Shown one piece after another: positions 2,819-3,048 of a DNA stretch of 64,000 nt (position 1 is the first letter of the stretch; the number at the start of each line of letters is the position of its first letter). Location of the stretch: the NCBI RefSeq assembly GCF_024655565.1, contig NZ_JANKOF010000014.1, positions 1 through 64,000 of the forward strand, in the 5' to 3' direction. This DNA comes from Nitratireductor sp. ZSWI3. GTDB taxonomy: Bacteria > Pseudomonadota > Alphaproteobacteria > Rhizobiales > Rhizobiaceae. A program made the position numbers and the translations under genes. The notes beneath the pieces are model-generated. The model was given only the letters and a program-made list of their open reading frames with translations. It did no database searches and was not told where the DNA came from.

Positions 2819-2837
2819 GCGTTGCCCTCCGAAGGCG
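2819..2837 (+). repeat. tRNA-Arg anticodon-arm fragment (candidate att remnant)
   Basis: GCGTTGCCCTCCGAAGGCG matches the anticodon arm of the intact tRNA-Arg at 2996-3014 in 17 of 19 positions, same orientation, 177 nt upstream. The flanks do not continue as a tRNA, so this is a fragment rather than a second gene. Unlike the intact copy it keeps a fully paired anticodon stem base (C-C-C-loop-G-G-C). Confidence 0.5.
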
Positions 2838-2971
2838 GGTGTCAACAGGGTGCGTGAAAATGAGGAGACGAAAAAGGAGTACAGCAACAAGGATTTGCGA
2901 GGCCCTCGTTCTGATCTTTCAACTCGCGAGAAGTTCACGTAAGCACTGCGTAAGCAGTTGCGACCCGGTAA

Positions 2972-3048
2972 GCACCCGTAGCTCAGCTGGATAGAGCGTC
3001 GCCCTCCGAACGCGAAGGCCACAGGTTCGAATCCTGTCGGGTGCGCCA
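2972..3048 (+). tRNA. tRNA-Arg (anticodon CCG)
   Basis: 77 nt cloverleaf with encoded CCA. Acceptor GCACCCG/CGGGTGC (2972-2978, 3038-3044), D stem GCTC/GAGC, anticodon loop CTCCGAA with CCG at 3006-3008, T arm ACAGG-TTCGAAT-CCTGT, discriminator G3045, CCA 3046-3048. The last anticodon-stem pair (31-39) is a C-C mismatch, which is unusual and may reflect recombination within the arm. tRNA-Arg(CCG) genes are frequent integration targets. Confidence 0.95.

What the first reader, a model, noticed from the sequence alone, without database searches (positions are those of the whole stretch)
2819..3048. Duplicated anticodon-arm core next to a tRNA-Arg with a broken stem pair
A 19-base piece of the tRNA-Arg(CCG) anticodon arm lies 177 nt upstream of the intact gene. 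The fragment keeps the pairing G at position 39, while the full tRNA has a C-C mismatch there. This is what a recombination crossover in the anticodon loop followed by divergence would leave, with the serine recombinase nearby. It marks a candidate att site and a tRNA whose function may be slightly altered.
Basis: partly seen in the sequence, partly recalled or inferred. Interest (0 to 1): 0.55.

Follow-up and report, generated by a model that had tools for sequence, protein, structure and literature searches.

The report
Mobile element carrying a replacement tRNA
The tRNA piece and the nearby slightly damaged tRNA gene form the left end of a transmissible DNA element from a widespread family that cuts the host's arginine tRNA gene in two and brings along a whole spare copy to replace it.

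Summary
Window 2795-2836 matches the 5' part of tRNA-Arg(CCG) at 32/42 (22/32 left of the core), 177 nt start-to-start upstream of an intact gene with a C31-C39 mismatch. It is the left end of a trb-type integrative conjugative element (ICE). Its family does not repair its tRNA target in the usual way. In five elements of this genus tRNA-Arg(CCG) is split in the anticodon loop, with a 5' half at one end, a 3' half at the other, and a whole tRNA-Arg(CCG) gene just inside the left end. The joined halves equal the native gene in 5 of 5; a tyrosine integrase lies beside the right end in 4 of 5. A class-wide pattern scan gave 101 of 101 informative sites with a whole carried gene. Carried genes have recoded but paired anticodon stems (native inner stem kept in 5/100 against 42/50 native genes). 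They show 0/88 stem mismatches where the host gene is split and 4/12 elsewhere. The window's element sits at a degenerate tRNA-like half-site beside a serine-recombinase/HigBA module. A Parvibaculum contig shares that flank, but identity breaks at the core.

The parts
2795..2826 (+). Degenerate tRNA-Arg(CCG) 5' half (first 32 nt), left side of the attL-type junction
   Evidence: 22/32 in register; 2 of 470,040 control positions as good; L217 has the same half-site, 28/32 identical to the window, with 9 departures from the tRNA in common
2827..2836 (+). Crossover core CTCCGAAGGC (anticodon loop plus part of the 3' stem arm)
   Evidence: Present in the left and right junctions of G000 (C54/C83), G003, G004, G009; identity to L217 breaks directly right of it
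2837..2971 (+). Element left-end linker
   Evidence: 86.6% to G009 over 2806-3050; matches L095-L099 at 81-91%
2937..2956 (+). Pair of CGTAAGCA repeats (2938-2945, 2949-2956), putative integrase arm sites
   Evidence: same octamer pair, same spacing, at -150/-139 of G009's right end, and CGGAAGCA pairs in the C83, G003, G004 right ends; G009 integrase has an arm-binding domain PF13356
2972..3048 (+). Carried replacement tRNA-Arg(CCG), C31-C39 mismatch (3003/3011)
3..1676 (-). Large serine recombinase, cut off by the contig start; part of the left flank
   Evidence: PF00239, PF07508, PF13408
1669..2049 (-). HTH protein, likely HigA-type antitoxin
   Evidence: PF01381, E 1.3e-4, 22.4 bits, just under the cut-off of 23
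2039..2542 (-). HigB-type toxin
   Evidence: PF09907, E 1.2e-29
2466..2777 (-). Small ORF of the recombinase module
   Evidence: DNA similarity at about 2499-2576 in L089, L286, L284, L271; no Pfam hit
48863..58220 (-). trb conjugation operon (TrbI, CagX, VirB8, TrbL, TrbE-type, T2SSE-type ATPase)
   Evidence: Pfam hits; DNA similarity inside the G003, G004 and G009 elements and right of the left end in G056
63416..64000 (-). Part of the coupling-protein gene (the rest scanned at C14:64001-65401); relaxase-type protein at C14:67957-69849
   Evidence: PF02534 E 1.6e-79; PF03432 and PF11843

Best explanation
Window 2795-3048 is the left (attL-type) end of a member of an ICE family of Alphaproteobacteria. 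Shown by sequence: in relatives the element lies between the two halves of tRNA-Arg(CCG), split in the anticodon loop, and carries a complete tRNA-Arg(CCG) gene that starts 156-358 nt from the start of the split gene; in 4 of 5 elements examined at both ends a tyrosine integrase lies beside the right end. Inferred: the integrase binds the two arms of the anticodon stem and cuts in the loop; integration breaks the CGG-reading tRNA gene and the carried gene supplies it; precise excision rejoins the halves. The carried gene keeps the loop, needed for decoding, but its stem is recoded and still paired, most likely so that the element's own integrase does not use it. In the window the element is joined, at this same core, to a degenerate tRNA-like half-site at the edge of a serine-recombinase/HigBA module. 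A different member of the family is joined to the same flank in a Parvibaculum contig, so the half-site served as a recombination partner at least twice. Here the carried tRNA is redundant with the one on contig C54 and has lost one stem pair by a single substitution.
For: Split halves plus whole tRNA in G000 (C54/C83), G003, G004, G006, G009; joined halves equal the native gene of ICE-free congeners in 5 of 5. Integrases beside the right end in G000, G003, G004, G009. Left end shared with G009 and G056. trb genes, coupling protein and relaxase on the same contig. 101 of 101 informative pattern sites have the whole tRNA. Native inner stem kept in 5/100 carried against 42/50 native genes, while the T stem diverges equally (0.122 against 0.134). 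Stem mismatches 0/88 against 4/12, p = 1.3e-4, window not counted. Identity to L217 falls from 89/94 (2701-2794) to 20/34 directly right of the core; the window linker is closest to L183 (0.919) and L217's to L175 (0.896), against 0.815 to each other.
Against: No right end or cognate integrase of the window's own element in the assembly; G006 also has no relative of that integrase. G056 and 5 of 100 carried tRNAs have an unchanged stem. Native controls come from one order, carried genes from the whole class. On the linker tree strongly supported branches alone force far fewer stem changes than the 19 counted. No sigma-70-like promoter was found at 2560-3260. Recombination, transfer and tRNA expression were not tested.
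Confidence: 0.82

Rival explanations
1. The left 32 nt are the host's own tRNA 5' half, split by this very element long ago and decayed since.
For: 22/32 identity in register; 88 of 101 pattern sites do have a clear host half.
Against: The flank is not the native upstream flank, which is on C54; L217 shares the flank and 9 departures in the half-site although its element is a different one.
Confidence: 0.12
2. The left 32 nt were never a tRNA: they are the right end of a neighbouring element, or a secondary site that resembles the target by chance.
For: L133 has another tyrosine integrase directly left of the core; 13 of 101 sites (one, L216, cut off at the left) have no clear tRNA half; the recombinase module occurs on plasmids without the tRNA.
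Against: 2 of 470,040 control positions match as well; L206 keeps 34/42.
Confidence: 0.3
3. Stem recoding of carried tRNAs reflects foreign origin or drift, not evasion of the integrase.
For: Carried genes also differ from the consensus in the acceptor stem (0.055 against 0); 5 of 100 are unchanged.
Against: The T stem is no more divergent than in native genes but the anticodon stem is (0.358 against 0.092); all 100 are fully paired there.
Confidence: 0.4
4. One reading: att site of the serine recombinase, with the tRNA next door as target, altered by the crossover.
For: Serine recombinase 1.1 kb away; crossover core in the anticodon loop.
Against: Tyrosine integrases lie beside the matching right ends; the mismatch is a lone substitution.
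Confidence: 0.04
5. Plain tandem duplication and decay of a tRNA gene with no mobile element.
For: Both copies lie in the same orientation.
Against: Linkers with the octamer pair in 11 families; trb element to the right.
Confidence: 0.02

Closest known systems
Conventional tRNA-targeting islands/ICEs (Islander principle, PMC4383910, passages read; ICEMlSymR7A at tRNA-Phe, PMC8627217, passages read)
   Same: Crossover in a tRNA gene by a tyrosine integrase; displaced tRNA fragment at the far end.
   Different: There the junction itself restores the gene from a fragment on attP. Here the gene stays split and a separate whole gene is carried.
Conventional elements at the same tRNA-Arg(CCG) in G011 and G022 (L261, L262)
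   Same: Same site and crossover region; integrases 37% and 48% identical to G009's.
   Different: Target restored to 77/77 at the junction, 3' fragment about 10.5 kb away, no carried gene seen.
Paracoccus yeei prophage beside two tRNA-Pro genes (PMC6209633, passages read)
   Same: Integration is said to have left an extra tRNA copy.
   Different: 52-nt repeats at the start of two tRNA genes; a split target with a recoded replacement is not described in the passages read.

Membership tests
Integrative and conjugative element (trb type) | Type IV secretion genes | tested here: met
   TrbI, CagX, VirB8, TrbL, TrbE-type, T2SSE-type ATPase
Integrative and conjugative element (trb type) | Relaxase and coupling protein | tested here: met
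   PF02534, PF03432/PF11843, on contig C14 beyond the window end
Integrative and conjugative element (trb type) | Own integrase and both att ends | tested here: inconclusive
   Left end present; G009-type integrase not in the assembly apart from C83's; the contig ends at 69,849
Conventional tRNA-targeting island (Islander principle) | Target gene restored at the junction by an attP fragment | tested here: not met
   In G000, G003, G004, G006, G009 the native gene is split and a separate whole gene is carried
Conventional tRNA-targeting island (Islander principle) | Displaced 3' fragment at the far end | tested here: met
   In those five elements; not found for the window's own element
ICE integrated by a large serine recombinase | Serine recombinase with its own att pair | not tested
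   Recombinase present in the left flank; its att sites were not looked for

The most novel reading that the evidence does not exclude
A class-wide ICE family of Alphaproteobacteria uncouples its attachment site from tRNA function: it splits the host's CGG-reading tRNA gene and supplies a complete tRNA whose anticodon stem was repeatedly recoded by paired changes so that its own integrase ignores it. Hosts then read CGG only with an element-borne tRNA. Where the carried gene is redundant, as in this window, it decays.
Probability: 0.5. Interest if true: 0.78.

Novelty: new variant of a known kind. Interest (0 to 1): 0.64.

Why it matters
Islands in tRNA genes are described as restoring their target from a carried end. 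Here a tRNA gene that looks essential is broken and replaced by element cargo, at sites in at least ten orders, which should also protect the element's left end from loss (inference). The recoded stems are a natural series of altered integrase core sites and make the reading of the anticodon stem by integrases testable. Island finders that pair one tRNA with one fragment may place the left end inside the element (inference). The 0/88 against 4/12 contrast ties tRNA decay to redundancy.

Tried and rejected
Rejected: serine-recombinase att site; plain tRNA duplication; window left flank as the native tRNA-Arg upstream flank (four ICE-free congeners' flanks match C54, G003, G004, G006 or G009 but not the window); window left flank as the right end of the same ICE family (no octamer pair there); phage origin (the single IMG/VR hit is an ordinary tRNA). 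I first read the shared Parvibaculum junction (94.7% over 3052 bp) as one unit that moved together; one search showed that identity breaks at the core, so I dropped that reading, lowered the main confidence slightly and split the rival on the left half in two.

Led nowhere: Rfam does not see the fragment; no sigma-70-like promoter. Paper searches brought up no description of a split tRNA with a carried whole replacement in the listings and passages that I saw; the library holds open-licence papers only, and Williams 2002 was not held. Passages were also read in PMC8371274, PMC9174649 (it mentions a tRNA-Arg symbiosis ICE in Bradyrhizobium NK6) and PMC4741004. In one search the register of the 5' half was off by one; one search has the right one.

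Dropped rows: 10 of 119 pattern sites were cut off by sequence ends and 8 were ordinary tRNA genes. One 75-nt carried tRNA was left out of the stem counts. Three of 28 extra control loci had no CCG tRNA. L216, cut off at the left, is counted among the 13 sites without a host half. Some order-level loci are the same contigs as named ones (L095=L183, L102=L168, L103=L193; G009=L175).

Full report
Observation. The intact tRNA-Arg(CCG) at 2972-3048 and its C31-C39 mismatch are real. The upstream piece is more than an anticodon arm. In register, 2795-2826 matches the 5' half of the tRNA 22/32 (2 of 470,040 control positions reach that), and the first 22 positions alone match 14/22 (69 of 470,260). 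Rfam does not report it.

Relatives explain it. In the same genome, contig C54 has a perfect tRNA-Arg 5' half 289 nt start-to-start upstream of a second intact CCG tRNA, and contig C83 has a perfect 3' half beside a tyrosine integrase. G003, G004, G006 and G009, of the same genus, show halves and whole gene on single contigs, with 4.6 to 93 kb between the halves. Joining the halves gives exactly the native 77-nt gene of ICE-free congeners G001, G002, G007 and G008 in 5 of 5. An integrase was found beside the right end in G000, G003, G004 and G009, not in G006. In G000, six tRNA loci similar to the query gave Arg anticodons tct, cct and acg, one tRNA-Pro, and ccg only at the window and on C54, so CGG appears to be read only by carried tRNAs. 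G009 is Nitratireductor sp. pb3 (8000 of 8000 nt identical to L175); the window's species itself was not named.

The window's element. Window 2806-3050 is 86.6% identical to G009's left end. To the right follow cargo genes, a trb operon at 48.9-58.2 kb, a coupling protein and a relaxase-type protein. The trb region matches the interiors of the G003, G004 and G009 elements at about 68-80%. No G009-type integrase exists in the G000 assembly apart from C83's (66%). C83's octamers (CGGAAGCA) pair it with C54, not with the window's CGTAAGCA. The window's element is incomplete, or its right end was not assembled.

The left flank. A large serine recombinase and a HigB-type toxin with an HTH partner lie left of the half-site. 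Similar recombinase modules without the tRNA occur on Paracoccus and Ketogulonicigenium plasmids and on chromosomes. A Parvibaculum MAG contig (L217) shares window 1-3051 at 94.7% overall, but not evenly: 89/94 at 2701-2794, 28/32 in the half-site, 10/10 in the core, 20/34 directly right of it, 110/135 over the linker. The window's linker is closest to L183 (0.919) and L217's to L175 (0.896), against 0.815 to each other. Two different family members are therefore joined to one flank, at the core. That supports a real crossover point and a half-site older than both events. Whether the half-site was once a tRNA gene or is a neighbour element's end stays open; in L133 another tyrosine integrase lies directly left of the core.

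How general it is. A linker search in 397 genomes of the order matched 27, its own included. Of 19 fetched loci other than the window, 14 have the split half plus whole tRNA, 1 is cut off and 4 are ordinary tRNAs. So 101 of 101 informative sites have the whole gene. The 88 fall in 10 named orders, 5 unassigned.

Stem recoding. Of 100 carried tRNAs of 77 nt the stems are TCGCC/GGCGA 44, CCACC/GGTGG 22, CCGCC/GGCGG 12, CTACC/GGTAG 8, TCGGC/GCCGA 7, unchanged CTGCC/GGCAG 5, others 2; all are 5/5 paired. The native inner stem TGCC/GGCA is kept in 5/100 carried against 42/50 native genes (p = 2e-23; distinct sequences 2/37 against 19/24, p = 2e-9). T-stem divergence is equal (0.122 against 0.134), anticodon-stem divergence is not (0.358 against 0.092). 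On a tree of 80 linkers the stem type changes 19 times (least possible 7, shuffled mean 36); few branches are well supported and those alone force far fewer. I read this as escape from the element's own integrase; that is inference. The pattern also demands TGCC in the left half, so the host arms in that set are selected; the native controls are independent of it but come from one order.

The mismatch. At the 88 split sites no carried tRNA has a mismatch in 17 acceptor, anticodon and T-stem pairs; at 12 others four do (p = 1.3e-4), and the window would be the fifth of 13. The window tRNA equals 14 others except at that one base. The broken pair is most likely decay of a redundant carried copy; a sequencing error is not excluded.

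Literature. Islander and the Mesorhizobium ICE survey (passages read) describe restoration of the target by an element fragment. The searches named in Tried and rejected did not bring up the whole-gene variant; this does not prove that it is unpublished.

Noticed in passing
L247-L250, L252, L254: Native tRNA-Arg(CCG) of 6 of 50 control genomes has stem TTGGA/TCCAA with loop TTCCGAT or TTCCGAA and lacks the att core; such hosts may escape this integrase.
   Followed up: no
L040 15528-17186 (C83); L029 downstream of the tRNA: A different serine-recombinase-type gene in C83 ends inside the 3' end of tRNA-Arg(CCG), antisense; the same region follows the intact native tRNA in G001 at 89.4%.
   Followed up: partly
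window 28789-30084: Second serine recombinase lacking the first third of the catalytic domain (profile 54-144 of 145), probably truncated.
   Followed up: no
L133 4416-5735: Ponticaulis MAG: another tyrosine integrase with arm domain directly left of the core, i.e. two elements stacked at one site.
   Followed up: partly
L043 (G006:C34 11973-16636): Only 4.6 kb between the two tRNA halves and no relative of the G009 integrase at E up to 1e-10 in that genome: a collapsed element whose carried tRNA is kept.
   Followed up: partly
window 3-2777: Serine recombinase + HigBA + small ORF module recurs on alphaproteobacterial chromosomes and plasmids with different flanks.
   Followed up: partly
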